Origin: a virus
Direction: 5' to 3' (one strand)
DNA length: 31,832 bases
IMG/VR virus record: IMGVR_UViG_3300013126_000142
Location: 1-31,832 of that record
Shown here in pieces: positions 7,759 through 31,832 of this stretch. The position numbers were made by a program, and so were the translations under genes. A model generated the notes under the pieces. That model worked only from the letters and a program-made list of their open reading frames with translations, did not search any database and was not told the DNA's origin. Numbering within the stretch: position 1 is the stretch's first letter; each line of letters begins with the position of its first letter.

Positions 7759-8238
7759 ATGAGCAAGAGCCTCCGCGCAAATCTCCCATTTGATTCATCC
7801 AAAGGCGCCTGCCGCGAACACGGCGTTCTTGTGTTTTATCCAATCGTGGAAAAACCGACAATGTCAACCAAGATGCGTGCGTTAATTCAGGAAGCAAAAA
7901 AGATTTGCTCTACATGCGAAGTTAGAGAGCCATGTCTCAAATATGCCTTAGAGAATGAGTCGCACGGAATTTGGGGTGGATTATCGGAAACCGAGCGACA
8001 GTATCGTAGATTGGAATTGGGTATTGTTTACAAACCGTGGGAAACGGGAAACGGTACCGAGGTGGAATCCACAAATGCGATTCGTGCCCGTCGTCGTTGG
8101 CGTGATGCTGAACGAAAACGACAAGAACGTGAACGCAAAGCAAAACAACGAGACAAACAAAACCCCAACCGAAAAAAGAGGCGTTCCAATGTGAAATCCG
8201 ATGTGATAATCGGGGATGAAACGATTAAATCAGAATGA
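7759..8238 (+). CDS. whiB: WhiB-family iron-sulfur transcription regulator
   Basis: A 159-residue product (start chosen from the promoter position; a TTG at 7750 would lie inside the -10 box). Four cysteines, C18, C50, C53 and C59 (ICSTCEVREPC), are arranged as in WhiB proteins to hold a [4Fe-4S] cluster, followed by the family turn GIWGG and the helix LSETERQYRRLELG. WhiB proteins bind the principal sigma factor and are confined to Actinobacteria and their phages, which points to the host. Unusually, about 60 extra residues follow, dominated by Arg/Lys/Glu (a helix, then RKKRRSNVK), which may give non-specific DNA contact. It overlaps the primase-helicase gene by ATGA. Confidence 0.9.
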   Translation: MSKSLRANLPFDSSKGACREHGVLVFYPIVEKPTMSTKMRALIQEAKKICSTCEVREPCLKYALENESHGIWGGLSETERQYRRLELGIVYKPWETGNGTEVESTNAIRARRRWRDAERKRQERERKAKQRDKQNPNRKKRRSNVKSDVIIGDETIKSE

Positions 8239-9989
8239 CGCAACTCGCCTCTCCGACAGTTGAGTCGTTCTTAAACAAACTCAACGGTGTAAAGAAAACT
8301 GGCGCCGGTTGGCAGGCGCGTTGCCCGTGCCGCAATGATGACGAAAACCCATCTCTGTCTGTCGCGCAAGGAAACGACGGTCGCGTCCTCGTCACATGCC
8401 ACCGTGGTAACGGTTGCGATGTGGTGCAAATTTGCACATCTCTCAGCATGAAAGTCACCGACCTTTATCCCCCACGCAAGGAGGAGCGGAAACTTTCTCT
8501 TGTTGCGACATATGACTACCGAAATGAAAAAGGCGAAGTTATCTATCAAAAACAACGATTCGTAGACCAATGGGGAAAGAAAACATTTAAGCAACGCAGA
8601 CCCGACCCAAGCAATCCCAAAAAATGGATTTACTCGTTGGAGAATATAGACAAAACGCTATATCGTCTCCCCGAAATTATTCAGGCTCGTGAAAATAACG
8701 AAGTCATATGGCTCGTTGAAGGCGAAAAAGATGCAGACAATTTGGTCAAACTCGGCTGGTGCGCAACGACTCCGCCAAACGGCGCTGGCAAATGGCAAGA
8801 TTCGTTTACCGAAATTCTTCGTGGGTGCGGAGTATTCATCATCGCCGATAATGATGCACCGGGTTGGGAGCATGCGAAAGACGTACAACGCCGATTACAA
8901 AAAGTTGGATGCACGGTTAGCACATTTGTGCCACCCAAACAATTTAAAGATGTTTCCGAACTATTGGCAAACGGGGGGAATCTTGAAGAACTAATTGATT
9001 TCAAAGATGCAGAGCCTCTTAGTTCGGAAGAACGAAAAGATGAAGAAAATGAAGAATCAGATGAACAGGCTTTATCGGATGCAACATCTTCACTTGAGTC
9101 CATAGCCTCGCAAATCACCAAAGTTTTGTTGCGCCAAGACCTTTCTGAAGATACGCGAATTTCTCGTGCGACGATGTTGCTCAATCAAATCAAAGGTGAG
9201 AATGACTACGACCGAGGGCGACTCATTAATTGGCAGGATTTTCTTGGTGAGTCAGCAGACGAGGAATTTGATTGGGTTATTGACAATCTGATTGAACGAG
9301 GCGAACGCATAATGGTGGTGGCAGCCGAGGGAGTCGGCAAAACCATGCTTGCGCGACAGGTAGCGATTTGTGCTTCCGCAGGTCTTCATCCGTTTAATTT
9401 TTCTCGTATCAAACCTATTCGCACCCTGACTATTGACCTTGAAAATCCAGAGCGTATTATCCGACGAACATCTACGAATATCATGAACGCGGCATTGCGT
9501 TACGGGCATGTAAAACATGTTGATGCACACATACTTATCAAGCCTGCTGGCGTGGATTTACTGAGGGCTGAAGACAGGGCAATCATTGAGGAGGCTGTGG
9601 AGAGAATCAAACCAGACCTTCTTTTTGTTGGACCTTTATATAAATCATTCGTAGACCCGGGCGGGCGAACATCAGAGGCTGTTGCCGTTCAGGTAGCAAA
9701 GTTCTTTGACATGATTCGCGACTACCACGAGTGTGCATTGTGGTTGGAGCACCATGCGCCTTTAGGCTCGTCAATGAGCACGAGGGATTTGCGTCCGTTC
9801 GGGTCTGCTGTTTGGTCGCGGTGGCCGGAATTCGGTCTTTCGCTACATCCTGACCCAACAATTGTTGGGGAATATGTTTACGATGTGCGACATTTCCGTG
9901 GTGCGCGAGATGAACGACCATTCCCGACTAAACTTAGAAGGGGTAAAGTATTTCCGTTTGAATTAGTTGATGTGAGAGACCAAATATGA
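8235..9989 (+). CDS. Phage primase-helicase (zinc finger, TOPRIM, RecA-like)
   Basis: A 584-residue fusion. Residues 30-61 hold a zinc-binding primase finger (CPC then CHRGNGC). Residues 143-250 form a TOPRIM domain with the acidic motifs VEGEKD (161-166) and ADND (204-207). An acidic, disordered linker (about 255-290) leads to a RecA/RepA-like ATPase with Walker A AAEGVGKT (363-370), DLEN (401-404), Walker B-like DLLFVGP (461-467) and LEHHAP (504-509). Such proteins prime and unwind at the phage fork. The ATPase half is of the RepA/AAA_25 type rather than classical DnaB. The start overlaps the whiB stop (ATGA) and the stop overlaps the next start (ATGA), so all three are coupled. Confidence 0.88.
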   Translation: MTQLASPTVESFLNKLNGVKKTGAGWQARCPCRNDDENPSLSVAQGNDGRVLVTCHRGNGCDVVQICTSLSMKVTDLYPPRKEERKLSLVATYDYRNEKGEVIYQKQRFVDQWGKKTFKQRRPDPSNPKKWIYSLENIDKTLYRLPEIIQARENNEVIWLVEGEKDADNLVKLGWCATTPPNGAGKWQDSFTEILRGCGVFIIADNDAPGWEHAKDVQRRLQKVGCTVSTFVPPKQFKDVSELLANGGNLEELIDFKDAEPLSSEERKDEENEESDEQALSDATSSLESIASQITKVLLRQDLSEDTRISRATMLLNQIKGENDYDRGRLINWQDFLGESADEEFDWVIDNLIERGERIMVVAAEGVGKTMLARQVAICASAGLHPFNFSRIKPIRTLTIDLENPERIIRRTSTNIMNAALRYGHVKHVDAHILIKPAGVDLLRAEDRAIIEEAVERIKPDLLFVGPLYKSFVDPGGRTSEAVAVQVAKFFDMIRDYHECALWLEHHAPLGSSMSTRDLRPFGSAVWSRWPEFGLSLHPDPTIVGEYVYDVRHFRGARDERPFPTKLRRGKVFPFELVDVRDQI

Positions 9990-17819: not shown

Positions 17820-17834
17820 TGGTCTTTGGGGGGG

Positions 17835-17863
17835 TTGACAAACGCATTTCAAGACCGTACACT
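17835..17863 (+). promoter_or_regulatory. Strong promoter with leaderless start
   Basis: TTGACA (17835-17840), 17 bases, TACACT (17858-17863), then 7 bases to ATG 17871. The predicted transcription start coincides with the A of the ATG. No ribosome-binding site is present. Confidence 0.72.
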
Positions 17864-17870
17864 TATGGAT

Positions 17871-18413
17871 ATGAGTAATAGCACCAACACAACACAACGA
17901 CAACTACTTCTTCCTACGGTTAGGAACCTAGAAGAGTCTCGGGCGATTTGTCACGAGTTTTCTTCCGTTCTTACCGCAGGTCCAAGAAAATCAGAGGTCA
18001 AGGATTTTAACCATCCTGACCACAAAATCGTGACATTTGACGATGTCGTGACACCCGATTGGGGTGATGCTCCAACTTTTGAGCATGTCCGAGAGATGAT
18101 TGGGTGGGGTCACGGTAGAGAAAATCTACTTGTCCACTGTCATGCTGGCATAAGTCGCTCTACCGCTACGGCGTGGGGAATCGCAATCTCCAACGGATTC
18201 AATGAACACGACGCTTTCCACTTGCTGAAGCATAATCACCCCATTGTTTCGCGTCGCAATTGGTGGGGGAACGAACAAGACAAGACTTTGAGCGATGTAT
18301 ATAAGCGTTCATTCTCACCAAACGAACTCATCGTTGAGCACCTTGAACGATTGTTCGGGTTCAAGTCGGGTCGTTTACTTAAAATTCTGAACGCTTTCTT
18401 CCTAGGGGAATAA
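17871..18413 (+). CDS. Cysteine-dependent (dual-specificity-type) protein phosphatase
   Basis: A 180-residue product. The signature HCHAGISRST (89-98) gives the phosphate-binding loop HC-x5-R with nucleophile C90 and R96, preceded by the strand ENLLVH and followed by the helix TATAWGIAIS. A general acid is likely among D60-D66 (FDDVVTPDWGD). Order and size match compact dual-specificity or tyrosine phosphatases. It should remove phosphate from Tyr/Ser/Thr, though RNA or small-molecule substrates are possible. The start at ATG 17871 is fixed by the promoter; a longer frame from 17826 would run through the -35 and -10 boxes. Three small co-directional genes follow. Confidence 0.82.
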   Translation: MSNSTNTTQRQLLLPTVRNLEESRAICHEFSSVLTAGPRKSEVKDFNHPDHKIVTFDDVVTPDWGDAPTFEHVREMIGWGHGRENLLVHCHAGISRSTATAWGIAISNGFNEHDAFHLLKHNHPIVSRRNWWGNEQDKTLSDVYKRSFSPNELIVEHLERLFGFKSGRLLKILNAFFLGE

Positions 18414-19967: not shown

Positions 19968-21527
19968 TCACCCAACCACTATTATACGAAAAGAAAGTTG
20001 TTTAGAACCTGTCCTGTTGTTCTTGAAATAACGACCGCCAGAAATATGGTGAGAGCCGCCCATTTCATACAAATTGTCATCATCTGCTGTAATCATTCCC
20101 TCTATTTGTGAGCGCGACGAACCACGGAGACGCTTGGCAAGTTCGTCAGGCAATATTCCTGCCTTCTGTTTGGGAAAATCACCCCTCGCCAAAACAAAGG
20201 CGTTTTGCCCCCTTGTCTCCATTGCCAGAGCACCATGAACCGATTCGGGCATCATTGACTTGTGAGCCTGATACGCCGCCTCCTCCCCATGTCGGTCAAA
20301 CCCACGCCCTGTGGCAAGATGTCCAAATACATCGTGAACAGCCCTAAATTTGTCGTTTGTGTCGTCATCCCAATATGGATGAGAACCAGTCACCGATGTT
20401 TTCATAACCTTCAGACGCTTGTTCTCAACAACATCTTTTCGCATTGAATGGAATCCGTCATAGGGGTCGTAGTCCACAAACTCTACGGTTATACCCATTT
20501 CTCTCAGCATTTCAAATTGACGCTCAACTTCTTCTTTGAGTTCGTCATACGCTTTCTTTGCTTTTTCATCAACCTCTGGCTGTAAGTCGTAATGGTCGGC
20601 AATTCGTTGTCTTTTCTCGGGCGCAACTGCCACAACATCACTGAAATCACCATTCAAATGTTTGGCAAACATTGGAATGGGCTCAGCCAATTGCATGGTC
20701 ACATTCTCAGGACCAGTTCTATCCATATTCTTGGGTTCCACAATGGCGGGTTTGGCATTAGCGGCAGATGGTTTTCTCTTTGACCGCATCATTTCTACTA
20801 TCGGGTCAAAGGTATACCAAGGAATCGTATCTGCCCCATCGCCATCGGTTGTCAAAAAAGCGTTGTCCCAGTCCTCTTTTTCGTTTGTTTCTTTAGCCCT
20901 CCACAACCTCTCAAGAAAAGCAATTGACTTTTGATTCTGCGCTTTACCCAACTCGTAAGCCCGTTCCCTGTTTTGTTCATTGTTCTCATAGATGTCAACA
21001 ACATCAATATAAAACATCCCTTTCTCAACCCAAGCCCCAATCCCAACTTGCCTCGCACCCTCTAGCGGTTCGTCAAAAATTCTTTCCCCGTGATATTCCA
21101 TCCATGCAATCACGCGGTCAATCGCATCCTCGCGAACCTCGCCATTTTCATCAAAAACCTTATCCATATCCACCGACATACCGTGCTTATTCCTGCCCAC
21201 CGATATGCCTTGCTTAACATCCATTTTGAGATTTCTGTCTGCAGTGAAACCACCAGACTTTGCCTCAATTAGCCATTTGCGAACAACTTCCGATTTTTGT
21301 GGACTATCTTGTCTTAATTCAAATTTTTTTATACGAAAACTACGAAGACTGTCAATGGCATAACGAAGTGCGGTAACAAGGGGTGTTTTGTCCTCGTCAC
21401 TACCCGGCATGGTGAACATTCCGTCACCATCTCCATCCTTGGGAAATTTGGGTTTTCCGCCAAGCGCAACACGTCGTATATTGCCGATGTTTAGTCCAAG
21501 AATTTTTATGCGAATTTCGTCAGACAT
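19968..21527 (-). CDS. Multi-domain phage protein with HDxFGH domain
   Basis: A 519-residue product. ATG 21527 is chosen because an extended -10 ends 7 bases upstream. Residues 24-45 contain PKFPKDGDGDGMF, a Ca-loop-like acidic motif. Residues 105-200 form a beta-rich domain (VGRNKHGMSVDMDKVFDENG... GIGAWVEKGMFYIDVVDIYE) of a kind found in actinophage proteins. After a polar linker, residues 295-460 hold a second domain with TGSHPYWDDDTN, FRAVHDVFGHLATG (H398, H403), RHGEEAAYQAH and METRGQNAF. The His/Glu cluster looks like a metal or catalytic site, but the activity is unknown to me. The gene follows the capsid gene and its terminator. Confidence 0.7.
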   Translation of the reverse strand: MSDEIRIKILGLNIGNIRRVALGGKPKFPKDGDGDGMFTMPGSDEDKTPLVTALRYAIDSLRSFRIKKFELRQDSPQKSEVVRKWLIEAKSGGFTADRNLKMDVKQGISVGRNKHGMSVDMDKVFDENGEVREDAIDRVIAWMEYHGERIFDEPLEGARQVGIGAWVEKGMFYIDVVDIYENNEQNRERAYELGKAQNQKSIAFLERLWRAKETNEKEDWDNAFLTTDGDGADTIPWYTFDPIVEMMRSKRKPSAANAKPAIVEPKNMDRTGPENVTMQLAEPIPMFAKHLNGDFSDVVAVAPEKRQRIADHYDLQPEVDEKAKKAYDELKEEVERQFEMLREMGITVEFVDYDPYDGFHSMRKDVVENKRLKVMKTSVTGSHPYWDDDTNDKFRAVHDVFGHLATGRGFDRHGEEAAYQAHKSMMPESVHGALAMETRGQNAFVLARGDFPKQKAGILPDELAKRLRGSSRSQIEGMITADDDNLYEMGGSHHISGGRYFKNNRTGSKQLSFRIIVVG

Positions 21528-21534
21528 CACAGTA

Positions 21535-21621: not shown

Positions 21622-22941
21622 TCAGGCAGGTGCACCGTCAAACGTGACTTCGACGAACGCTTCCGGACGCTTGACAGCAAGCGCAAGGCGCTGCTCGGCA
21701 AGAATCACGATTGCGTTACGCACGAAGAAGTCTGCGTGCTGCTCGCTGATGCGGATGTTCGCCGTCTCGCGGTCGTAGATTTGCGCCGCGGTGCCGAATG
21801 CGCCGACAAGTGCGGTGCCTTCTGCGATTGCGGGTGTGTCCACAACAGGGATGCGCCACAGGCGAGGCTGACCACCAAGGGCGACCGACACAGCAACGAG
21901 GTACTGACCGTTGTCATCCTTGGACAGTTCAATGTCCTCCCAGTCGTTCGGGTGCATCACGACGCCCGTCGGCTCGTAGTACGCGAGGAACGAGAGCGTT
22001 GCCGCACGACGGATTGCATCCGCCTTGAGGTCGCCCACGCCACCTGCAGACCACGAGTAGGTCTGGATGCCGCTGGTGTTGAGAACACCTTCAAGGTTCT
22101 CGCCCGTTCCGTCACCGTTCAGAATCTGAGTGTCCTCAAGAAGACGCAGACCGTACATCAGTTCGTTGTCGATGATGCTACGGAGTTGCGGCTCATCGGC
22201 AAGAACATTGCGGTGAGCGGCTTCCCAGTGAGCCATCGTGCGAACCGGTGCCTGATGTCCAGTGAACTTCAGACCCGACTGCGGCTTGGCACCGAACACT
22301 GCGGGCGAACCCGAGCGCTCGGCGACCGCTGCCGCGTTGTTGGTCGGAGGCGTCATGCCAGCCGGTGAGGTGTAGCCGATTTGACGGAAGTACTCAATCA
22401 CGGCAGCGTTGGTGGTGCGCTTCGGGAAGAGGTCGCGGACGCGACGGGTACGAGTCGGGGCAACGACCATCGGGTCGCGCTGGAACGTACCGAACTGCTC
22501 AACCGACGAAAGCGGCGACGCCGGACCCGTTGGCATACTCGTGAAGACATCCTTCACGTTGTACTCAAACGGGGCAGGCATGTTCGCGCCATTGCGACCT
22601 GACTTCAGGGACTTGAACTCTTCTGAAGCGAGAAACGCATCACCGATGCTCTTGATTTCACGCGAGGTCAGTTGCTGAACTGGTTGAGCGGCGGCGCTTG
22701 CGACCGACTCAGAGGCGGGCTGTGAAGCCCACTTCTCTGCATCGCGCATGCTCTCCATGCCTTCAATCAGGCTCTTGATTTCGCGGATGTCCGACATGTT
22801 GCGGTCGAACGCGCTCTTTTGTTCTGCAGAAACAACAACCGTGCCGTCTTCAACTTTGAAAGAGTCGGCGATGGTCTTGTTGTCTGTCATCTTTTCGCGA
22901 AGTGCGGTTTGCAGTTCGCGAAGGCGAATGTCATCAGACAT
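21622..22941 (-). CDS. HK97-type major capsid protein
   Basis: A 439-residue product from ATG 22941, with the near-perfect ribosome site AGGAGGG 6 bases upstream; a longer frame from 23010 is unlikely. Residues 1-100 are a charged helical 'delta-domain-like' region (LRELQTALREKMTDN, DIREIKSLIEGMESM). The fold then follows the HK97 plan: an N-arm, VRDLFPKRTTNAAVIEYFRQ (E-loop entry), a spine region, GLRLLEDTQILNGDGTGENLEG, GVVMHPNDWEDIELSKDDNG, PRLWRIPVVDTPAIAEGTAL and IYDRETANIRISEQ...FFVRNAIVILAEQRLALAVKRPEAF. Codon use is richer in G/C at third positions than in its neighbours, as expected for the most abundant virion protein. No separate protease gene is visible. Confidence 0.92.
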   Translation of the reverse strand: MSDDIRLRELQTALREKMTDNKTIADSFKVEDGTVVVSAEQKSAFDRNMSDIREIKSLIEGMESMRDAEKWASQPASESVASAAAQPVQQLTSREIKSIGDAFLASEEFKSLKSGRNGANMPAPFEYNVKDVFTSMPTGPASPLSSVEQFGTFQRDPMVVAPTRTRRVRDLFPKRTTNAAVIEYFRQIGYTSPAGMTPPTNNAAAVAERSGSPAVFGAKPQSGLKFTGHQAPVRTMAHWEAAHRNVLADEPQLRSIIDNELMYGLRLLEDTQILNGDGTGENLEGVLNTSGIQTYSWSAGGVGDLKADAIRRAATLSFLAYYEPTGVVMHPNDWEDIELSKDDNGQYLVAVSVALGGQPRLWRIPVVDTPAIAEGTALVGAFGTAAQIYDRETANIRISEQHADFFVRNAIVILAEQRLALAVKRPEAFVEVTFDGAPA

Positions 22942-22980
22942 TTGAATCCCTCCTGGGGAATGTGTTGGGTGGTTGTAATC

Positions 22981-23010
22981 GTTATACGACTTAGGTAAGC
23001 ACCCAGTCAC
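22981..23010 (-). promoter_or_regulatory. Possible capsid-gene promoter
   Basis: Minus strand GTGACT (23010-23005), 18 bases, TATAAC (22986-22981). The -10 matches consensus in 5 of 6 positions and the -35 in 4 of 6. It lies about 40 bases before the capsid ATG, leaving room for the leader with AGGAGGG. Confidence 0.45.
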
Positions 23011-23070: not shown

Positions 23071-24192
23071 CTAAGAGAGTTTGTGTCGCCTGACAATACT
23101 CTGCGGACAACAACCATCAATAATCTTTACACCTTTTGTTCCATCGGTGAAATAGCCGTCTTTCTTGACTGATTTGACATCCTTGGATGGATGGTTCTCG
23201 GGAATCAAATCAAAGTCCATTCGTGAACCGCGAGGCATCGGCTCATCAGAACTCATCGCCTTGAGAAAAGTTAATACACGCTTCTTGGCATCCGCCTCAG
23301 AACCAGCAATCAACCCGCGCACATATACCTGCTTAACATCACGCAAATTAGTTTTATGAGCCTGCTTCTTGACGGACGCATTGTGTTTACGCACGAGAAT
23401 CGCCAAACCATTGACGGTCTCACTGCTCACATTTGGCAAACGTTTCTTGGGTCGGGTAATCATTTTCTTTTGTACATCACGCAAACCATCAAAAGATTTC
23501 TTGCCGGTTCGCACACGCGGATTCTTCTTTGGCGACCTATCTGTTCGCAAACCCATAACCCTGTTGTAGTCAGAACCGTTAGAGCATGGCAACCAAACGG
23601 TTTTGCCGTCACTAGCCGTATATCGCCTGATTCCGATACACCCCAAGTTTCTTGCCCGTACACGAGCAGAATCAGGATTTTGAAACACATCGGGGTCAGT
23701 TGACCTACTCACACGATTAACGAAACTCTTACCCTCCATATTTGAATCAGGACAACAGTTCTCGGACTTGGCAGAAACAAGACCACCATCAGGCAAGGTT
23801 TCAATACCCGCAACACCTCGTTCCCGTAGGGGGTCAAACCGCTCAGTTGCCACACACGGCGCATAGTACTTGAGTCCACCAAAAACAATTGTCCGCACAC
23901 CCTTGCACCCGCGCTTGCGGGATGCTTCCTCTGCCATTGCACGAGTCTCGTACATTTCGCCAGATTTTGATTCTGTTAGAGAAGCACGATGCTCTAACTC
24001 TGTTCTGGGAACGCGAACACTTTTTGCTGATGCTTTACGCATCTCATTGGAGCCCTTGCGAACTGAAACAAACTCATCGTGAGAGGCACATGGCATCCAT
24101 GACCCGTCATGCTCATGCGCACCGCGACAACCAAGTTGACGGGCAACCATGAGCGCCTGCTCCCGAGTTACTTTGGGTTTTTCGTCGCTCAT
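23071..24192 (-). CDS. Virion-region protein with three Cys-pair repeats
   Basis: A 373-residue product (AAGGA 5 bases upstream). A module of the form AxxxARxLGCxGxH....WxPC occurs three times: ARQLGCRGAHEHDGSWMPC (C22/C35), SRKRGCKGVR...YYAPC (C96/C113) and ARNLGCIGIRRYTASDGKTV...PC (C185/C203). A CC pair lies at 146-147 and another near the C-terminus (DGCCPQS). The repeats could each bind metal or form a disulfide in the virion. The C-terminal 150 residues are basic and partly helical (LAILVRKHNASVKKQAHKT, EADAKKRVLTFLKAMSSDE). It lies between the capsid gene and the kinase-like proteins, so it is probably virion-associated. Confidence 0.65.
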   Translation of the reverse strand: MSDEKPKVTREQALMVARQLGCRGAHEHDGSWMPCASHDEFVSVRKGSNEMRKASAKSVRVPRTELEHRASLTESKSGEMYETRAMAEEASRKRGCKGVRTIVFGGLKYYAPCVATERFDPLRERGVAGIETLPDGGLVSAKSENCCPDSNMEGKSFVNRVSRSTDPDVFQNPDSARVRARNLGCIGIRRYTASDGKTVWLPCSNGSDYNRVMGLRTDRSPKKNPRVRTGKKSFDGLRDVQKKMITRPKKRLPNVSSETVNGLAILVRKHNASVKKQAHKTNLRDVKQVYVRGLIAGSEADAKKRVLTFLKAMSSDEPMPRGSRMDFDLIPENHPSKDVKSVKKDGYFTDGTKGVKIIDGCCPQSIVRRHKLS

Positions 24193-24200
24193 TTGCTTCC

Positions 24201-24503
24201 TTAGATATCTATAACCGTGTAGCCAAGTTTCTTAATGACGGCATCAATTTTGGTTTTTGCTTCACCCGAGTATTCGCCTTCTTCTGAATCGTAATAACTG
24301 AAACCCGTCGTCAAACCTTCCAAACTTTTGAAGAACTTGTTCGGTTTGGGGTTTGAATACACCTTTTTGGAAAACTCATAAAATCTTATGTCGTCTTCTT
24401 TGCTGTTTGAAAACTGACGAACACCATCCCCCACCTCAATGAAAACAATCGGCATGCCTTTGAAGTTAAGGACTTCCGATGGGGTGAACATGCGATACTT
24501 CAT
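24201..24503 (-). CDS. Small hypothetical protein
   Basis: A 100-residue product. MKYRMFTPSEVLNFKGMPIV is followed by a mixed alpha/beta region (FIEVGDGVRQFSN, DDIRFYEFSKKVYSN, KFFKSLEGLTTGFSYYDSEE) and IDAVIKKLGYTVIDI at the end. It starts 9 bases after the kinase-like gene and ends 8 bases before the Cys-repeat gene, so all three are one transcript. The AAAGGAT that serves as its ribosome site is formed by the end of the preceding gene. No motif recognised. Confidence 0.55.
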   Translation of the reverse strand: MKYRMFTPSEVLNFKGMPIVFIEVGDGVRQFSNSKEDDIRFYEFSKKVYSNPKPNKFFKSLEGLTTGFSYYDSEEGEYSGEAKTKIDAVIKKLGYTVIDI

Positions 24504-24512
24504 AAAACAATT

Positions 24513-27206
24513 TTATCCTTTCAGAATGATTTTGGTTATTTCTTCAGGGTCGGCGTCAATCAACCATTGCAGACGCTTATCGGTATGAGCGACCATATGG
24601 TCAGGTTTATTATCCTTAATTTTTCGTGGGTTGCCCGGTGTGCCCGCTGCTTCCATTACTTCCTTGCCGAACAGTGCAAATTGTACTTTTTCTTGACTTT
24701 CACGCAAGCGTCGCTGAACCGCAATCACTTGTTCTTTAACTTGCTGACGAGTCAATTCCCCACGTTTAACCCTTGTACGAATTCCATTAATAATATTATT
24801 TCGGGCACCAGCACCATCCACCCAATATTGTAGACCTTCTGCGTTTCCGTAGTCTTTATCTAAATCAAAGAAACCTGCTTGATGGAAAGTTAGAGACATG
24901 TCAATCGGCACAATACGCTTCAAGCCGTTTGATTCTTCAATCACGAAATAATTTCCGCCGTGTCTGTCCACATTCAAAATTGCGAAATCCAAAAGGGTCA
25001 ACGCAACACCGTCCGCAACATTTACGTCAAGCAACTCAGTAAACATCGCTGGCGACTCATATGGGTCTGCCACATAGTTGGACACATGTTCAAACAGAAC
25101 CGCTCGTCCTTCGCCTTGCCTATCTTGATAGGGGGAACCAACAAAACGGAAACCACCGACAGGAAAACCCATTCTTCCGGCAATATTATTCCCCAAAACT
25201 TCGGCAACATCTTCTTGTGCTCCGTGTGCGCGTCTTTTTTCGTATTTCATCAAATATTTTTTACCAGTTGTTCTATCGGTGAATACGCGCAACTCTCCGT
25301 TGATGCCGCCCCTCATGTTCCCAAGTTCGTAACGCTTGTCTGGCTTTGGTCCGAAAGGACCGCCGGGGTCCGTGTCCGTATTTGCCTCAAGTGCGCTAAT
25401 GACAAAAATATCGGGCACATCTCGCAAGTCTCCACCATTTTTTAGATGTTCTGCAGCCTGTTCAGCATTACTGATTTTTGTGTTTGGTTGTACGGCTTTC
25501 CCTGCGGGAAGACCGTCATCGCCAAGGGGAGCCAGTTTGTTATCTTCTTTAATTTGTTTTCCGCCAATCTCTGCGGTCTTCACCTTCGGTGCATCTCCAT
25601 CGGATTTTGGTTTATCTGCCTTGGGTGAAGTTGGCGGTTTCGGAGGAGTCGGAGTGGGAGCCCTCGGGTTTGACGGCGGAGTTTCGGGTGGCTCTGGCTT
25701 TTTCCACGGCGGGTCGTCAACGGCTTTTTGGAACATCTCGTTTTCTAAATCACGTCGCCTGATGTCTTGTTTGTTCAGAATGATTCTGCGAAGAGCACCC
25801 TCTCGTTCTCCGGCTGACCGATTTTTTTCGCGGAGAAAGTCTATGTCTTTACTTATACGTTCAGCCGCCCCACGCTTTTCTTGGTCGTTGATTGCGATAC
25901 GTTCTTTAAGTTCTTCAACATCTCCCCAATTTCCGTCGCGCACTTCGTCTTCAAATCTGTCTTGAGCGTCCAAAGTGAATTCTTGTTCTTCCCAAAGACT
26001 CTTCATTCGTTGAAAGTCATCATTGTCGAGACGGTCTATGTTTCCCCTCTCAAGCAACATATTGATATTGTCAAACAAAATATCAAACGGGTCGTTGCTG
26101 TCTGTAGGTGTGCTCGGTTTCTCTGGTGTGGGGGTACTTGGCTTTTTCGGTTCAGGCTTTTTCGCTGTTGGTTTCTTGCGTTTTGGTTTCGGTTCTGGCT
26201 TGACAGACGGTTCCATCGGTTCACCAGTAGGGCGCTTCCCTGCAGTTTCTTTAGCCCTTTCTTCTGACGCTCGTCGCCTACGGGCTCGTGCAGGACGCTT
26301 TGGTTTCGGTTCAACGATTTCTTCTGAACCCGTACGGGGTGCGCCAGGTTCCTCTAACTCTCTGCGCACTCTACGACGCTCAGAGTCGCGCAAACCTTCA
26401 TCGCGTGCGTCGGAATCAAAACCACCTCCGCGTACACCACCCCTACGTCGTGGTGCAGGCTTCTTTGGCGCACGAGGCTCTTTCGGTGCGTCACCACCTT
26501 CAAGTGCTTCCGCAACTCCACGCAAACCCCGCTCAATGCGACCACCCTCCTCTGCCCGACCAAGGCGTTGCAACATTCTTCGGTTACGGCGCTCAAGCCG
26601 ACGTCCGCGTCGTCTATCGTCAACATTTTCCAATCGTTCACCGATGTTGGTAATAGCATTAGCGATTCTTCGTGCTACACCCCAACCGCAATTTCGTCCG
26701 AATCTGTCGGTTATCTGCCCACCATATCGCGTGCCGACTGGACATCGCCATCCGCCGCGACGACCAGTGCCAGGAATTGAGAGACCCGGGTCCCAAAGTG
26801 CTCTTACTCGTTTGACTTCATAATTGAAAGTTGTCTTGCGTGATTCTGATACGAATGCGCGTGCCTTAAACTGAATTGTTTCGCGTTTTTCGTTTGCGGA
26901 AAAGTATTTAATCGGTATATCAGAAACAGATATCTTTTCTGCAAATTTTTCTTTTGGTTTGGGTTCGCGTCGGAGAGCCTGTGCAACAAGCGTTTCGGGC
27001 ATTGGACCTTCTACGGTCATCCCGCGGTCAAGAGCGACGCTTAGTTCCTGTTTTGTTATTTTTGAATTTTTGTATTCATCTCTGAAAGCGTCAACCAACC
27101 CTTTGGAATCTTCGGCGATTGCGCGAAAAGTCGTTCCAACATCCGATGTTGTGGCGACGAAGTACGGCTTGTCTTCGCGGTTTCTGACGATGAATGAAAT
27201 TTTCAT
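24513..27206 (-). CDS. Large protein: basic/disordered region plus HipA/PI-kinase-like domain
   Basis: An 897-residue product (GGAAAG 7 bases upstream of the ATG). Residues 1-140 are a folded N-domain. At 145-190 a Gly/Cys/Arg motif (GWRCPVGTRYGGQITDRFGR, NCGWGVARR) recurs in actinophage proteins, by my impression. 195-380 is highly basic, then Pro/Lys-rich. About 385-520 is charged helix. 540-570 is a Pro/Lys linker. About 600-840 is a kinase-like domain: K654 (YLMKYE), E665/E669 (AQEDVAEVLG), catalytic loop DRHGGN (747-752) and metal Asp in VPIDMS (D769). These match the actin-fragmin/PI3-4-kinase/HipA group. It shares the 30-residue DARDEG...PGAPRT module with the next large protein. It is likely a virion or ejected protein; the substrate is unknown. 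Confidence 0.72.
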   Translation of the reverse strand: MKISFIVRNREDKPYFVATTSDVGTTFRAIAEDSKGLVDAFRDEYKNSKITKQELSVALDRGMTVEGPMPETLVAQALRREPKPKEKFAEKISVSDIPIKYFSANEKRETIQFKARAFVSESRKTTFNYEVKRVRALWDPGLSIPGTGRRGGWRCPVGTRYGGQITDRFGRNCGWGVARRIANAITNIGERLENVDDRRRGRRLERRNRRMLQRLGRAEEGGRIERGLRGVAEALEGGDAPKEPRAPKKPAPRRRGGVRGGGFDSDARDEGLRDSERRRVRRELEEPGAPRTGSEEIVEPKPKRPARARRRRASEERAKETAGKRPTGEPMEPSVKPEPKPKRKKPTAKKPEPKKPSTPTPEKPSTPTDSNDPFDILFDNINMLLERGNIDRLDNDDFQRMKSLWEEQEFTLDAQDRFEDEVRDGNWGDVEELKERIAINDQEKRGAAERISKDIDFLREKNRSAGEREGALRRIILNKQDIRRRDLENEMFQKAVDDPPWKKPEPPETPPSNPRAPTPTPPKPPTSPKADKPKSDGDAPKVKTAEIGGKQIKEDNKLAPLGDDGLPAGKAVQPNTKISNAEQAAEHLKNGGDLRDVPDIFVISALEANTDTDPGGPFGPKPDKRYELGNMRGGINGELRVFTDRTTGKKYLMKYEKRRAHGAQEDVAEVLGNNIAGRMGFPVGGFRFVGSPYQDRQGEGRAVLFEHVSNYVADPYESPAMFTELLDVNVADGVALTLLDFAILNVDRHGGNYFVIEESNGLKRIVPIDMSLTFHQAGFFDLDKDYGNAEGLQYWVDGAGARNNIINGIRTRVKRGELTRQQVKEQVIAVQRRLRESQEKVQFALFGKEVMEAAGTPGNPRKIKDNKPDHMVAHTDKRLQWLIDADPEEITKIILKG

Positions 27207-27229
27207 TTAGGTCTTTCCAATGGTCTGCC

Positions 27230-27249
27230 AACACCATGCAGACGGTGTT
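27230..27249 (-). repeat. AACACC-N8-GGTGTT inverted repeat between large genes
   Basis: A 6-bp perfect inverted repeat in the 80-base gap between the two minus genes at 27,206 and 27,287. There is no T-tract on the minus side. It could be a weak processing or regulatory hairpin. Confidence 0.3.
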
Positions 27250-27286
27250 CCAATAATACCATTCACCCAAACAGGGCGTAATGTAA

Positions 27287-27607
27287 CTATTTTTTTTGAT
27301 TATTTGATTTTTTATAAGAGGGTTGCCCTTTGAGTTTCTTTAACGCATCATCAATCTCTTTTGGGGAAGCGTTTTCTTTCAAAGAAACATTGTATGGGGT
27401 CATTCCCGTTGAAAGCGCGTCTCGTGCTTTTTGGGGAGTGGAAAACACGGTCTTGACTGCGTCGCCAAACTTGGAACTATCTTCCACTACGCCAGACGAA
27501 TAATGACGTTTCCACTCGTTTGTTGCGGTCACAACAACAACCTCATACAACAATGATGGCTTCTCTTCGTCGGGAGATGTTACCTGTAGGAGATACGGAA
27601 AGCCCAT
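27287..27607 (-). CDS. Small hypothetical protein between the kinase-like genes
   Basis: A 106-residue product with AGGAT 8 bases before the ATG, 17 bases after the 1,401-residue gene. The N-terminal half is beta-rich (YLLQVTSPDEEKPSLLYEVV, VVTATNEWKRHYSSGVV). A helix FGDAVKTVFSTPQKARDALS follows, and the end is Lys/Asn/Gln-rich. By position it could be a partner of either kinase-like protein, much as the 100-residue gene follows the other. No family recognised. Confidence 0.55.
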   Translation of the reverse strand: MGFPYLLQVTSPDEEKPSLLYEVVVVTATNEWKRHYSSGVVEDSSKFGDAVKTVFSTPQKARDALSTGMTPYNVSLKENASPKEIDDALKKLKGQPSYKKSNNQKK

Positions 27608-27624
27608 GTGTTTATCCTAGCCAA

Positions 27625-30600
27625 TTAATTGAATTGTTTGATAAGGTCATCTTTGTGTCGCTTCAAATATTCTAGTCTGTCAGCGACAATACGGCGAAGA
27701 GCGTTTAAATGGTTTATTTCTGCCTGTGTAAGTTTCATGCCCGCTTTTTCCAGTTGCTCTTGAGACATAATTTGTTCAAGTTGTTTTTCCAAAACTCTTA
27801 TGGTGCGGTCAACGGTTCGCACAAATCTTTCTCTGGCTGCTTGGTCTCGATGACGGAATCCTAAGCCTCTCAAACCATTAATACCGTTATTGAATACTTC
27901 GTCCCTATAGTGCGCTATGCCCCCACGCTGAATTCGTGCGCGATGATTTGCTACTTCGTCCTCCCATCGGTCTAGGCTTGGGGGTTCAGTATCGTCTGCC
28001 TCAACTTCACCCGGTATTCCGCGACCATATCCGATTAGTCCGTGGTCAATTAACCCCAAACGGGCTTTGCCGTTTTGGTCAATCGTATACATGAAGTTTC
28101 CTCCGTGTCGGTCGGCGTTTACGAACACAAAATCCAACACGGAAATTCGTGCTGCATCCTCAGGCGCTATATCGTCTGCGGTAACGTCAGGGTCATGCGG
28201 TAGTTTTTTGACATCAGCCCATTCCTGTTGGGGCACGACGCCTGCTCCGTGGTCCCAATCCATGATTCCACGCATCATCATCCATCGATGCCGCTTCCCT
28301 GTGTCCGCGTCTACTATTTCTTTCCCGATGCGCAAGTGTGCTCTGTCATTTCCTAATTGGATTGCTTCGGCGGCGCGCATCCCGATGCCCTCAAGCATCG
28401 CTCCGTGGTGACCATATACGGCTGCTTTGACAAACCAGGTTTCTCCACTCCGTTTATCTGTTACCTTAACAACATCCCAAACACCCCTACCGGCGCCGGT
28501 GGTCTTGATTAACTCAAAATTGAATCTTCTGTTTTCCATTTGACCACCCTTTTGCATGAACGCACCGAAACCCTTCGTCTGCAAATCTTCTTTGGTCGGA
28601 ACATTTCTCACATTACGAATCAAGCCCATGTCTGAGCCGGAATACTTCAGTTCTTCGTTAAACAATGCGTCAACAATCACCTCGTCGGCAACATCTTCTA
28701 TGGATACACCTCCTTCGTGAACAGCCTTGACAGCATCTTCATAATTTTTAATCCGTATAGACCCTGGTCTGCGAATCGGTGATGGTTCATTCGGAACTAT
28801 CAAACCACTGCCGTCAAATGTTTCGGTTTGCTGTGGTGCGACCTTGTCTAGGTGAGCGTCAAATTTTTTGACCATCTTGTCAAGCGCGTTCATTTCTGCA
28901 GCGTGAACGTTTACGGAGTTCATTCTGTCTTTAAGTTCTTGCTGTTCGCGCCGAGACAATCCGTCTAGGTTCTTTCCTTCGTGTTTTTTCAATTCCAATT
29001 CCAACATTTTCTGTGCAGCCTCATACCCTTGACGCCATCTCAATGAAGCGTCGGCTATTTGATTGCGTCTCTTTCTCAACTCTTCGGGTGTCATATTCGC
29101 AATATCGTTATCGGCAAATTCCGAGTACATTCTTTCTTTAGATTTGGCAAGCGTTTTAATTCTTGCCCTAAATGCATCTCGTGTTTCTCCAGCAAGAGAC
29201 CCGTCCTGCGGAATAATTTTTTCCAATGGGACTTGGTCTTCTGAACCGCCAAGAATGTTGGCTGCTTCTGTTGGGTTCGGCACTCTCATGTCTGGCACTT
29301 CTGGTGCTTTTTCCAAAAACCCGTCATCCCTCTTCTTTTGTGCCCTGGCAATGAGTTCACGCCTACGTCCAATATCCTGCTGAATTCTCGCAATAGCACC
29401 CAAAATTTCGTTTTGCCTTCGCTTGTCCAATTCTCCACCGCGGGTTGTTCGCTGGGCGCGGAGTTGTCTCATCATATTTGCCAATGTTGCTTGATGCGCA
29501 ATAATTGACCTTCGTTCTTCATCCATGAATCGTTCGGCTTTTGCAACATCGGTTATATCAGCAATTCGCTTTTCGTCAAGTTCTTTGATTCGCGCCCTTG
29601 CTCCTTTTTGTCCTTCATATTCTTTGCGGATAAGATTTCTTTCCCCTTCATCCAGTTGTCGCCATCCCATACCGAGTGCTTCAATGAGTTCATCAACTGA
29701 CGAGAAATTGTCGGCGTTCGCCGTATTCGCTTTTGGTGTTTTTGGTTTTTCTTTTTCTTTGTCTTGCGCAAGAATCGCGTTAAAAATCTGACCGCCTCGT
29801 GGATTCAGTTTCCCATTACGGTCATAAAACTGACCTAGGGCAGCCTCAATCTTTGCCCTATCTTCGTCACCCAAACCGTTCCCTTGCGTGTCTCTCCACC
29901 ACGGGCGCTTAGGAAGATTCGGAAAATCTTTCGGTTCTCGGTCAATATCCTGCGCTATTTGCTTCACGTCGTCCAAAGCCTTTCGCACCTTGCGAACTTC
30001 GTCATCCAATTGTGTCCCCGGCATAAATGGAGGCAACGGCAAATCGCTTTGGGCATCACCTTGAGGTTTATCCGCTTCAGGTTTCTTGGGTGTCTTGGGT
30101 TTACGCGTAGGCTTGACAAAACCAGCATCACGACGACGCTTCAACTCTTGATTGACAACTTTACCGCGATTATTTATGTTGTTGCTTCCATCGTAGTAAC
30201 GACCGAATCTGCGTTCTAGTTCAAACTTGTCATTACCGTCATATTTATCATCTCGCCAATACGCACTCTTTGGTAGACCGTTCTTTGGGAAACGATTATT
30301 TACATTACGGAATGAACGCTCATCTGGCTTGCTTTCGCCAGGAGCAAGTTCAAGTTCAACCATGTCTTCGTCTAGGTTTATGTCTTTGGGTGATTTGTCT
30401 TTCCCTTTAAAGCGTCTACGCTCCAATTCCCGATTGACGAACTTGCCACGATTATTGATATTGTTGTCAGCACCGTAATAGCGTCCGAATCGGCGCTCAA
30501 GTTCTGCTTTTACTTCGCCTTCGGGGAAATCTTTATCGCGCCAATAAGCAGTATCGGGTAGACCGCCTGCCGGGAAACGATTGTCTACGTTGCGGAATGA

Positions 30601-31832
30601 ACGCTCATCTGGCACACTCTCGCCTGGTGCAAGTTCAAGTTCAACCATATCCTCGGCGAGGTCAATTCTCTCTGTCGGCTTCTTTTGCGTACCCGCAGGT
30701 ACGGCTTCACCACCCGGTTTACGGGTAACACTTTCTTGCGCTCTTTGCTCGGAACCCTCTACGCGGCGTTTCCGAGGTTTACGAGGTTTTGGTTTTTCTT
30801 CCGCTTGCGGAGTGTCGCCCTCTTCTGTCCGCGGTGCACCGGGTTCTTCTATTTCTCTTCGGACACGACGACGCTCAGATTCCCTCAATCCTTCGTCACG
30901 AGCGTCAGAATCAAATGGTGGTCGTCGTGGTGGTTGTGCTGGCGCAGCCTGCGCTTCACTCTGCTGTTCGCGTTGACGCTCTTCGTTGCGCTTACGCAGA
31001 CGCGCATCTTGTTTCTTGCGGTTTTCTTCGTCTCTCTTTTCCGCTTCACGACGCTTTTCAATATTGCCTTGCAGCGTCCATCTGTTGTTTTGTGGAGTGT
31101 ATTCCCATTGGTCGCCTTCGTCGTCTGTCCATATGCGACGCTTTCCTTCGGGGTCTGGTGCGCCTTTGGGCTTCTTGCCTTCTCGATTTCTCAATCTCTT
31201 CTGGTAAAGACGGTCGTTTTCCAAATCTGTTTCGGAAGCAGGAACCCAGTAACCTTTTTTCTGCGGACCCTTACCTATCGCTCCCGCACCTAGGTTTGGT
31301 TCCCACTTATACGGTTTCCCGTCAACAAAAACAATTTCCCCTGGTTCTCTGCCGTCTCGTTTCGGCGGTTTGTAATCGGGTCCATAAAAGATATCTTCTA
31401 ATGTTTCTCTTCTTCGTGGTCGCCGCCTTCCACCCAAATCGTCATCTAATGTTTCTCTTCTTCGTGGTCGCCGTCTCCCGCCCAAATCGTCATCTAAAGC
31501 AACTTCGTCTCCACCTTCGGGTCTTCTTCGTCTCCTCCCCGCTCCGGGTCTAGTCGGTGCCGCGCCTTCCGCATCAGGAGTTTCGGGTGTACCGCCATCA
31601 GGAAGTTCTCCGTCTTCGGGAACATCAATAAATCCGTCGCTGCCATCAAACCAACCACGGTCATCGCGTTCCCAATAGCGTCGCCCGTTCGGGTTCAAAA
31701 TACCGCGCCAACCGCGACCAAGTTGCCCTGGTGGTTTACGGGGATTGATAACACGACGCCTACGAGGTGGTGTTTCGGTTTCTGGAACATCTGTTTCTGG
31801 AACATCTGTTTCTGGAACATCTGTTTCTGGAA
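27625..31832 (-). CDS. Giant repeat-rich protein with C-terminal kinase-like domain (5' end outside window)
   Basis: The frame is open from the right edge, so at least 1,401 residues are visible (counted here from the edge). Residues 1-20 are PETDV repeats; 45-390 are Arg/Pro/Glu-rich with two identical 16-residue units and the DARDEG...PGAPRT module (about 306-335). About 389-473 and 484-566 are two long repeats, and 635-689 a degenerate third. About 720-1,030 is coiled coil. About 1,060-1,330 is a kinase-like domain with K1135 (WFVKAA), E1147/E1155, DRHGGN (1240-1245) and LIDHGL (D1262). All residues for phosphotransfer are present. It is likely a virion or ejected protein; the substrate is unknown. 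Confidence 0.72.
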   Translation of the reverse strand, partial: PETDVPETDVPETDVPETETPPRRRRVINPRKPPGQLGRGWRGILNPNGRRYWERDDRGWFDGSDGFIDVPEDGELPDGGTPETPDAEGAAPTRPGAGRRRRRPEGGDEVALDDDLGGRRRPRRRETLDDDLGGRRRPRRRETLEDIFYGPDYKPPKRDGREPGEIVFVDGKPYKWEPNLGAGAIGKGPQKKGYWVPASETDLENDRLYQKRLRNREGKKPKGAPDPEGKRRIWTDDEGDQWEYTPQNNRWTLQGNIEKRREAEKRDEENRKKQDARLRKRNEERQREQQSEAQAAPAQPPRRPPFDSDARDEGLRESERRRVRREIEEPGAPRTEEGDTPQAEEKPKPRKPRKRRVEGSEQRAQESVTRKPGGEAVPAGTQKKPTERIDLAEDMVELELAPGESVPDERSFRNVDNRFPAGGLPDTAYWRDKDFPEGEVKAELERRFGRYYGADNNINNRGKFVNRELERRRFKGKDKSPKDINLDEDMVELELAPGESKPDERSFRNVNNRFPKNGLPKSAYWRDDKYDGNDKFELERRFGRYYDGSNNINNRGKVVNQELKRRRDAGFVKPTRKPKTPKKPEADKPQGDAQSDLPLPPFMPGTQLDDEVRKVRKALDDVKQIAQDIDREPKDFPNLPKRPWWRDTQGNGLGDEDRAKIEAALGQFYDRNGKLNPRGGQIFNAILAQDKEKEKPKTPKANTANADNFSSVDELIEALGMGWRQLDEGERNLIRKEYEGQKGARARIKELDEKRIADITDVAKAERFMDEERRSIIAHQATLANMMRQLRAQRTTRGGELDKRRQNEILGAIARIQQDIGRRRELIARAQKKRDDGFLEKAPEVPDMRVPNPTEAANILGGSEDQVPLEKIIPQDGSLAGETRDAFRARIKTLAKSKERMYSEFADNDIANMTPEELRKRRNQIADASLRWRQGYEAAQKMLELELKKHEGKNLDGLSRREQQELKDRMNSVNVHAAEMNALDKMVKKFDAHLDKVAPQQTETFDGSGLIVPNEPSPIRRPGSIRIKNYEDAVKAVHEGGVSIEDVADEVIVDALFNEELKYSGSDMGLIRNVRNVPTKEDLQTKGFGAFMQKGGQMENRRFNFELIKTTGAGRGVWDVVKVTDKRSGETWFVKAAVYGHHGAMLEGIGMRAAEAIQLGNDRAHLRIGKEIVDADTGKRHRWMMMRGIMDWDHGAGVVPQQEWADVKKLPHDPDVTADDIAPEDAARISVLDFVFVNADRHGGNFMYTIDQNGKARLGLIDHGLIGYGRGIPGEVEADDTEPPSLDRWEDEVANHRARIQRGGIAHYRDEVFNNGINGLRGLGFRHRDQAARERFVRTVDRTIRVLEKQLEQIMSQEQLEKAGMKLTQAEINHLNALRRIVADRLEYLKRHKDDLIKQFN
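29764..30666 (-). repeat. Three copies of a WRD/ERRFGRYY protein repeat
   Basis: Copy 1 (30666-30412) and copy 2 (30381-30133) share MVELELAPGES-PDERSFRN, NRFP--GLP--AYWRD, ELERRFGRYY and NNINNRGK-VN-EL-RRR. Copy 3 (29928-29764) keeps only FPNLPKRPWWRD, LGQFYDRNGKLNPRGG and the final helix. The first two are recent duplicates and the third is older. Confidence 0.75.
31399..31494 (-). repeat. Two 48-bp tandem units in the giant gene
   Basis: Each unit encodes DDDLGGRRRPRRRETL; the copies lie at 31494-31447 and 31446-31399 and differ at only a few bases. Alternating acidic and strongly basic blocks suggest a disordered, possibly nucleic-acid-binding segment. Unit number may vary between relatives. 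Confidence 0.7.
31786..31830 (-). repeat. 15-bp minisatellite encoding PETDV, cut by window edge
   Basis: The + strand reads AACATCTGTTTCTGG three times without change (31786-31830) and starts a fourth copy at the edge. Each unit encodes Pro-Glu-Thr-Asp-Val in the frame of the giant protein, which supports the frame being coding to the edge. A degenerate unit (ETETP) precedes it on the lower side. Confidence 0.75.

What the first reader, a model, noticed from the sequence alone, without database searches (positions are those of the whole stretch)
24513..31832. Two giant proteins next to the capsid gene, each ending in a complete kinase-like domain
Both proteins carry the same order of residues: ATP-type Lys (YLMK / WFVK), helix Glu, DRHGGN and a DFG-like Asp (VPIDMS / LIDHGL). 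This is the catalytic plan of the HipA and PI3/PI4-like kinase group. They are fused to long disordered, Arg/Lys/Pro-rich and coiled-coil regions and are encoded in the virion module, one gene upstream of the capsid cluster. Phage kinases are known (for example T7 gp0.7), but a pair of polyproteins of this type beside a capsid gene is not a system I know. They may be packaged and injected to phosphorylate host targets, or act on virion proteins.
Basis: partly seen in the sequence, partly recalled or inferred. Interest (0 to 1): 0.85.

Follow-up and report, generated by a model that had tools for sequence, protein, structure and literature searches.

The report
Tagged kinases beside phage capsid gene
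Uncultured phages, by capsid gene nearest to phages of Actinobacteria, carry between their portal and capsid genes a row of very large proteins that share an almost unchanging 'address' segment near the front but end in exchangeable protein-modifying enzymes (several kinds of kinase and an acetyltransferase), which looks like a swappable set of enzymes carried in the virus head to take over the host cell.

Summary
Both proteins (K1, 897 aa; K2, at least 1401 aa, start beyond the window) end in a kinase-like domain. Across 32 relatives at about 20-40% identity, Lys, Glu, Asp-Arg-His-x-x-Asn and Asp are invariant wherever the row has a residue. The AlphaFold model of K1 is good (pLDDT 86, pTM 0.88) and its 50 best PDB fold matches are all kinases, at modest TM-scores. 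It is not HipA or PI4K proper: a divergent phage family.

The pair is part of something larger. About 40 IMG/VR contigs carry the array; where covered, the order is portal, prohead protease(s), kinases, sometimes an acetyltransferase, DUF3721 protein, capsid. These giants share an N-terminal module of about 100-130 residues held by strong purifying selection, then a disordered linker, then the enzyme. Enzyme domains are swapped between otherwise 97-100% identical phages, and K1 is lost in a phage 99.0% identical to the window over 9.3 kb. Best reading, inferred: capsid-targeted, injected host-modifying effectors, working like T4 Alt or polyvalent proteins, with a new tag, a new kinase family and polymorphic-toxin-like swapping. 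Packaging, injection, activity and targets are untested. No relative of the window's kinase domain or tag was found by sequence in 50,697 phage genomes.

The parts
24513..27206 (-). K1: 897-aa protein (N1 domain, tag module, disordered linker, kinase-like domain)
26487..26888 (-). K1 N-terminal tag module (aa 107-240), core RRGGWRCPVGTRYGGQITDRFGRNCGWG, with the only two Cys of the protein
24516..25499 (-). K1 kinase-like domain (aa 570-897)
24951..24968 (-). K1 catalytic loop DRHGGN (D747-N752); metal-site Asp D769 at 24900-24902, Lys654 at 25245-25247, Glu669 at 25200-25202
   Evidence: window positions follow from the residue numbers
27625..31832 (-). K2: at least 1401 aa, 5' end beyond the window; homologue L003:5388-10304 (1638 aa, stop to stop) carries the same tag module near its start
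27628..28752 (-). K2 kinase-like domain (visible aa 1027-1401)
28096..28113 (-). K2 catalytic loop DRHGGN (visible D1240-N1245)
27287..27607 (-). 106-aa ORF between K2 and K1, weakly similar (28%, 3e-4) to the 100-aa ORF after K1
24201..24503 (-). 100-aa ORF after K1, conserved at this place in related arrays
23071..24192 (-). protein with three DUF3721 repeats between the kinase array and the capsid gene
21622..23010 (-). major capsid protein (Phage_capsid; the best-covering phage hits are about 45-57% identical, in Gordonia and Brevibacterium myophages)
17826..18413 (+). dual-specificity-phosphatase-like protein (HCHAGISRS) on the opposite strand, conserved near the array in the window's clade, L014 and L047/L048

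Best explanation
K1 and K2 are members of a modular family of phage head-cargo effectors. Shown by computation: each tagged family member has a shared N-terminal module of about 100-130 residues, a long charged low-complexity linker and a C-terminal enzyme domain, here an atypical kinase with all catalytic residues, in other family members an acetyltransferase. The genes sit in a fixed array between portal/prohead protease and capsid gene, and enzyme domains are exchanged by recombination while the module and the flanking genes stay. Inferred: the module is the address that brings these proteins into the prohead, perhaps with processing by the S78-type protease encoded in the same array; they leave with the DNA; in the cell the kinases phosphorylate host proteins (and the acetyltransferases acetylate them) to redirect host machinery or block defence. 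The phosphatase encoded nearby may reverse the marks later in some of these phages.
For: Kinase: invariant K/E/DRHxxN/D in 32 domains; Pfam PI3_PI4_kinase in 24/32 and HipA_2 in 8/32; PDB profile hits PI4KB, FAM20, CtkA and HipA at E 0.001-0.16; AlphaFold pLDDT 86, pTM 0.88; the 50 best Foldseek hits in the PDB are kinases; best viral match annotated 'PI3/4-kinase' in an uncultured phage, E 5e-15, TM 0.63. Tag: 86-96% identical between paralogues though 60-75% of four-fold sites differ and the kinase domains are only about 20-26% identical; dN/dS 0.06-0.08; carried by 54 of the distinct sequences surveyed, 37 classed kinase and 17 acetyltransferase, counting fragments and near-identical copies. 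Acetyltransferase: AlphaFold pLDDT 82, pTM 0.76, the 50 best PDB hits are acetyltransferases. Context: portal > S78 protease > array > DUF3721 protein > capsid in many contigs; the same slot in Gordonia isolates carries a VIP2-like ADP-ribosyltransferase. Swapping: L020 vs L022 are 99-99.6% identical in protease genes, 99.4-100% in KA, 95% in the KB front, 97% in MCP, but 28% in the KB kinase domain, with the switch visible along the DNA. Window vs L005: 99.0% over 9,291 bp up to the start of the DUF3721 gene, then divergence and loss of most of K1. Precedent: T4 Alt/IP targeting sequences and 111-130-residue propeptides of SPN3US head proteins (PMC9026906, PMC7411985).
Against: No experiment: neither presence in virions nor enzyme activity nor any substrate is known. 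The tag has no recognised relative, no protease site was identified, and one tag-less kinase of about 617 aa sits in the same array, so the tag is not a universal entry requirement. TM-scores to solved kinases are modest (best 0.42) and K2 was not modelled separately. The acetyltransferase call rests on remote fold matches (best E 8e-4, TM by query length 0.22). Some long proteins could be scaffold or core components. Only sequence-divergent isolates were found to compare.
Confidence: 0.6

Rival explanations
1. Late-expressed, unpackaged effectors: the kinases are made in the producing cell and act there (counter-defence, exclusion of other phages, host takeover); the position in the head operon only sets timing.
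For: Enzyme swapping and loss fit any arms-race effector; a phosphatase gene near the array is conserved in the window's clade, L014 and L047/L048.
Against: Does not explain a strongly conserved N-terminal module shared by different enzymes nor the fixed place between protease and capsid genes; loose effectors usually lie in early or accessory regions (general knowledge).
Confidence: 0.15
2. Virion-assembly kinases: the giants are internal scaffold or core proteins whose kinase domains phosphorylate capsid, portal or DUF3721 proteins to drive maturation.
For: Location beside protease and capsid genes; long charged, disordered or helical regions like scaffolds; the tag could bind the capsid.
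Against: Kinase domains of different subtype (28% identity) occupy the same slot in phages whose capsid and protease are 97-99% identical; K1 is lost in a phage 99.0% identical over 9.3 kb; the acetyltransferase variant.
Confidence: 0.12
3. Kinase-fold proteins without phosphotransfer, or with another transfer chemistry such as AMPylation: binding modules, decoys or transferases.
For: Remote similarity only; several atypical kinase-fold families have other chemistries (general knowledge).
Against: All ATP- and metal-binding residues retained in essentially all 32 members despite about 20-40% identity, unlike typical pseudokinases.
Confidence: 0.08
4. Surface-displayed capsid decoration: the tag anchors the proteins outside the head.
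For: Tag with two conserved Cys, long extended linkers.
Against: ATP-dependent enzymes would be useless outside the cell (general knowledge).
Confidence: 0.03

Closest known systems
Phage T4 Alt and internal proteins IPI-III (capsid targeting sequence, gp21 protease; PMC9026906)
   Same: Host-modifying enzyme placed in the head through an N-terminal address, beside a prohead protease, and ejected with the DNA; unrelated mature parts share the address
   Different: Tag of about 100-130 aa with two Cys and no evident relation to the roughly 10-residue T4 sequence; kinase and acetyltransferase instead of an ADP-ribosyltransferase; packaging unproven here
SPN3US/phiKZ-type head ejection proteins (PMC7411985)
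   Same: Long N-terminal propeptides (111-130 aa) thought to target proteins into the prohead
   Different: No sequence relation tested; genome and capsid type differ
Polyvalent proteins of phages and conjugative elements (Iyer et al. 2017, PMC5512222)
   Same: Very large late-gene proteins carrying protein-modifying domains (kinases, GNATs, ARTs), predicted to be packaged and injected
   Different: One enzyme recognised per protein here; the polyvalent kinases are described as having lost the C-terminal kinase subdomain and occur mainly in Verrucomicrobia-Chlamydia and Bacteroidetes lineages, whereas these keep a helical C-lobe and have DRHxxN
Polymorphic toxins (PMC3482391)
   Same: Constant N-terminal delivery module, variable middle, exchangeable C-terminal enzyme
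   Different: Phage head context, no immunity genes recognised, no secretion system domain
HipA, CtkA, CotH, FAM20 and PI4-kinase branch of kinases
   Same: DRHxxN-type catalytic loop and overall lobes; weak profile and fold matches
   Different: Weak to no full-length similarity; separate phage clade
Halovirus HSTV-2 gp16 (AGC34285.1)
   Same: 490-aa protein near the capsid gene with DRHYGN..AID kinase motif; the virus also encodes a dual-specificity phosphatase
   Different: Different virus group, gene lies after the capsid gene, no tag
VIP2-like and MuF-fused ADP-ribosyltransferases of Gordonia and Microbacterium phages
   Same: Host-modifying toxin-like enzyme encoded in the portal-capsid slot
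   Different: Different enzyme; no tag or kinase detected in the nearest isolates
T7 gp0.7 protein kinase
   Same: Phage kinase acting on host proteins
   Different: Made after infection, not in the head module (general knowledge); no sequence link tested

Membership tests
Protein-kinase-like superfamily | beta3 Lys, alphaC Glu, catalytic Asp/Asn loop, metal Asp | tested here: met
   K 30/30, E 31/31, D-R-H-x-x-N and D 32/32
Protein-kinase-like superfamily | Two-lobed fold | tested here: met
   K1 domain: pLDDT 86, pTM 0.88; 50 of 50 best PDB hits are kinases, but TM at most 0.42; K2 by homology only
HipA toxin kinases | Full-length HipA domain match and HipB partner | tested here: not met
   HipA_2 matches 8 of 32 members, the cases shown individually are below cut-off; no HipB-like gene noticed but not searched for specifically
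PI3/PI4 lipid kinases | Pfam PF00454 above its cut-off | tested here: inconclusive
   Window K1 none, K2 26.3 bits against 27.1; tag-less relative 32.6 bits; matches short, around the catalytic loop
Polyvalent proteins | Two or more disparate effector domains in one polypeptide | tested here: not met
   One enzymatic domain recognised per protein
Polyvalent proteins | Encoded with virion genes, predicted to be packaged | tested here: met
   Array between portal/protease and capsid genes
T4-type head-targeted ejection proteins | Shared N-terminal targeting segment | tested here: inconclusive
   A shared, highly constrained N-terminal module exists; its targeting role is not shown
T4-type head-targeted ejection proteins | Presence in virion and ejection | not testable with these tools
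   Needs mass spectrometry and a cultured phage
GNAT acetyltransferases (the related array member, not in the window) | GNAT fold | tested here: met
   50 of 50 best PDB hits are acetyltransferases, best E 8e-4, partial coverage; no Pfam support
Polymorphic toxins | Exchange of C-terminal enzyme domains on a constant front | tested here: met
   KB kinase domain 28% identical where the KB front is 95% and flanks 97-100% identical
Polymorphic toxins | Adjacent immunity gene and export/secretion module | not tested
   No candidate recognised in passing; no systematic search

The most novel reading that the evidence does not exclude
A phage-head 'polymorphic effector' system: a conserved module of about 100-130 residues sends giant proteins into the prohead, and recombination swaps the enzyme on its end (several classes of DRHxxN kinase, a GNAT), so that near-identical phages inject different sets of protein-modifying enzymes, possibly reset later in some of them by a phage phosphatase.
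Probability: 0.45. Interest if true: 0.85.

Novelty: new variant of a known kind. Interest (0 to 1): 0.74.

Why it matters
It would show that some uncultured phages keep an exchangeable arsenal of protein kinases and acetyltransferases for use in the first moments of infection, and would give a second capsid-address module besides the T4 targeting sequence, useful for asking what decides which proteins enter a phage head. The swapping between near-identical phages points to strong pressure from host targets or defences, so the kinase targets would be informative about host biology.

Tried and rejected
tblastn of K1 (whole and domain), the tag, the tag-less kinase and the L037 kinase domain against 50,697 phage genomes: no relative; the only matches, to staphylococcal small terminase genes at E 0.1-1, are taken as chance. 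The tag patterns in 84,980 bacterial and archaeal genomes gave no relative. The whole kinase alignment was too diverse for a genome scan. Gene conversion as the reason for the near-identical tags was rejected: 60-75% of four-fold sites differ. The idea that one genome arm simply differs in window vs L005 is answered by L020 vs L022, which are near-identical on both sides of the array. Assembly chimerism as the reason for swapping is unlikely because each version occurs in several assemblies. Relation of the 100- and 106-aa ORFs to the N1 domain: weak, not pursued. Direct membership of HipA or PI4K: not supported. A match of K1 to PADLOC candidate PDC-M03A (7.7e-6) is short and probably reflects kinase similarity. 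Literature searches found the polyvalent-protein and T4/SPN3US precedents but no account of this family; one planned search was malformed and not repeated.

Full report
The window is the whole of an IMG/VR virus record of 31,832 bases. The two reported proteins are real ORFs on the minus strand: K1 at 24513-27206 (897 aa) and K2 at 27625 to beyond the window end (at least 1401 aa; its homologue in L003 is 1638 aa as a stop-to-stop frame). Between K1 and the capsid gene (21622-23010) lie a 100-aa ORF and a protein with three DUF3721 repeats.

Kinase domain. K1 alone gives no Pfam hit at E 0.1 over the whole protein or 0.05 for the domain; K2 gives PI3_PI4_kinase just under its cut-off. PHROGs matches both to phrog_3162, a family of unknown function (K1 3e-8, K2 0.005). 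A seven-row alignment of the two window domains and close relatives found 28 IMG/VR loci, and 32 diverse domains could be aligned. At about 20-40% identity to K1, apart from one close homologue at 85%, Lys, Glu, Asp-Arg-His-x-x-Asn and the second Asp are invariant in every row with a residue there. 24 of the 32 match PI3_PI4_kinase, 8 HipA_2, 4 Fam20C, 3 CotH. Profile search of the PDB gives PI4-kinase beta (E 0.001), FAM20, CtkA and HipA (E up to 0.16). The AlphaFold model of the K1 domain has pLDDT 86 and pTM 0.88; Lys654 lies on the third strand of the N-lobe and Glu669 on the following helix. All of the 50 best Foldseek hits in the PDB are kinases, with modest TM-scores (CotH 0.42, Vps34 0.39). 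In the viral library the best match is an uncultured-phage protein named PI3/4-kinase (E 5e-15, TM 0.63); others include a Mycobacterium phage ADP-ribosyltransferase protein, halovirus proteins and head-morphogenesis-domain proteins. The domain is therefore an atypical, probably active kinase of a phage-specific group; K2 was not modelled separately and rests on homology and conserved residues.

The array. Relatives of the window (L003-L006) show a third kinase protein, K3, next to K2. In the wider set, where the contig covers it, the order is portal, S78-type protease, a second gene with a weaker protease match, sometimes a tag-less kinase of about 617 aa, a DUF5872-type protein, tagged giants with kinases, often a last tagged giant with another domain, DUF3721 protein(s), capsid. 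In the window's own clade no acetyltransferase giant was seen and kinases fill the slots. The best-covering capsid matches are about 45-57% identical to those of Gordonia and Brevibacterium myophages. There the same slot carries an RNA ligase, a VIP2-like ADP-ribosyltransferase (Gordonia) and large unknown proteins before the S78 protease and capsid gene; the kinase, tag and acetyltransferase profiles did not hit them. That the hosts are Actinobacteria is an inference from the capsid relationship.

The tag. K1, K2 and K3 share an N-terminal module whose core RRGGWRCPVGTRYGGQITDRFGR.CGWG is nearly invariant; in K1 it holds the only two cysteines. Over 80 residues the paralogues are 86-96% identical in protein while 60-75% of shared four-fold sites differ, so the identity is kept by selection, not by recent copying; dN/dS is 0.06-0.08. 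The kinase domains of the same proteins are only about 20-26% identical. Of the distinct tag-bearing sequences surveyed, 37 were classed with a kinase and 17 with the other domain; these counts include fragments, near-identical copies from overlapping contigs, and two entries with only a partial tag match. The other domain looked like a GNAT from its sequence (DGQYVWARVGF); its AlphaFold model (pLDDT 82, pTM 0.76) matches acetyltransferases in all 50 best PDB hits, best E 8e-4, over part of its length; Pfam gave no support.

Exchange of enzyme domains. L020 and L022 have protease proteins 99.0-99.6% identical, the first tagged kinase 99.4-100%, the front of the second tagged kinase 95%, capsid 97%; the second kinase domain is 28% identical and of another subtype (SDRHGGN..MDLGWAG against NPDRHAGN..IDHG), the acetyltransferase domain 56%, the tag-less kinase domain 75%. 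Along the DNA, 97-100% identity falls to 72-79% or to no alignment mainly in the enzyme domains, their linkers and the DUF3721 genes, and returns towards the capsid gene. In L018 against L020 it is the second kinase domain that is 98.8% identical while its linker is 62% and the first kinase domain 71.5%. The window and L005 are 99.0% identical over 9,291 bp from 24177 to 14887, beginning at the start of the DUF3721 gene; upstream of it K2 is 65% identical in protein and K1 survives in L005 only as a reading frame of about its first 91 codons. This constant-front, exchangeable-end pattern is the hallmark of polymorphic toxins; here it sits in a phage head module.

Mechanism. Shown: module organisation, gene order, conserved catalytic residues, selection on the tag, exchange of ends. 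Inferred: that the tag brings the proteins into the prohead, that the array's protease may trim them, that they are ejected with DNA, and that they modify host proteins. The precedents are T4 Alt and IP proteins (about 10-residue capsid targeting sequences; Alt modifies host RNA polymerase; PMC9026906), SPN3US head proteins with 111-130-residue propeptides (PMC7411985), and the predicted injected polyvalent proteins with kinases and GNATs (PMC5512222). The polyvalent kinases are described there as lacking the C-terminal kinase subdomain and are mainly from other lineages, so this is a different kinase group. A dual-specificity-phosphatase-like gene (window + 17826-18413; DSPc E 9e-6, below cut-off) accompanies the array in the window's clade, in L014 and in L047/L048, and halovirus HSTV-2 also has both a DRHYGN protein near its capsid gene and such a phosphatase; a write-and-erase relation is speculative.

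Limits. No experiment bears on packaging, injection, activity or targets. Searches covered the collections named, at their sensitivities; UniProt already holds unnamed or automatically named relatives, so the sequences are not unseen, but I found no description of the family in the open literature searched. Domain exchange was inferred from metagenomic assemblies; each of the two compared versions occurs in several assemblies, which makes chimeric assembly unlikely.

Verdict. I rate it a new variant of a known kind (head-carried, host-modifying phage effectors) with three new elements: a distinct kinase group, a shared N-terminal module, and exchange of enzyme ends.

Noticed in passing
window 23071-24192 (-): Protein with three DUF3721 repeats directly before the capsid gene, where the nearest isolates have their S78 protease; in relatives the stop-to-stop frame varies from 237 to 938 aa and is sometimes split into two ORFs.
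   Followed up: partly
window 19968-21530 (-): phrog_3170 protein with a HDVFGHLATGRGFDRHGEEAAYQAHKSM stretch, possibly a metal enzyme, and a DGDGDGM segment near its front; encoded after the capsid gene.
   Followed up: no
window 17826-18413 (+): Dual-specificity-phosphatase-like protein on the opposite strand near the kinase array; homologues in 14 fetched loci (the window's clade, L014, L047/L048).
   Followed up: partly
L005 about 7987-8290: Remnant of K1: an open frame of roughly its first 91 codons followed by unrelated residues and a stop, in a phage 99.0% identical to the window over 9.3 kb.
   Followed up: yes
L003:5388-10304 and window 29.8-30.6 kb: The K2 linker contains repeats of a small segment (RSFRNVDNRFPAGGLPDTAYWR...ELERRFGRYYGADNNINNRGKFVNREL), and K3 in L003 has its own two-copy repeat; an ESERRRVRRELEEPGAPRT-like motif recurs in linkers of kinase and acetyltransferase giants.
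   Followed up: partly
L034-L037: Other phages encode giant proteins with the kinase domain at the C-terminus (L035-L037: 1851-2974 aa; L034: 834 aa visible), each followed by a gene with a weak prohead-protease match.
   Followed up: no
L078:10647-12119 (HSTV-2 gp16): Archaeal tailed virus protein with DRHYGN..AID kinase motif (Pfam PI3_PI4_kinase 1.5e-5, below cut-off), three genes after the capsid gene.
   Followed up: partly
L018:6368-8095 and L006:2-1162: The DUF5872-type protein before the tagged giants carries a weak variant of the tag (RGYRCPSGFEFGGRFTDNAFSTCG); parts of it match short stretches of hypothetical proteins of Pelagibacter, Roseobacter and Synechococcus phages.
   Followed up: partly
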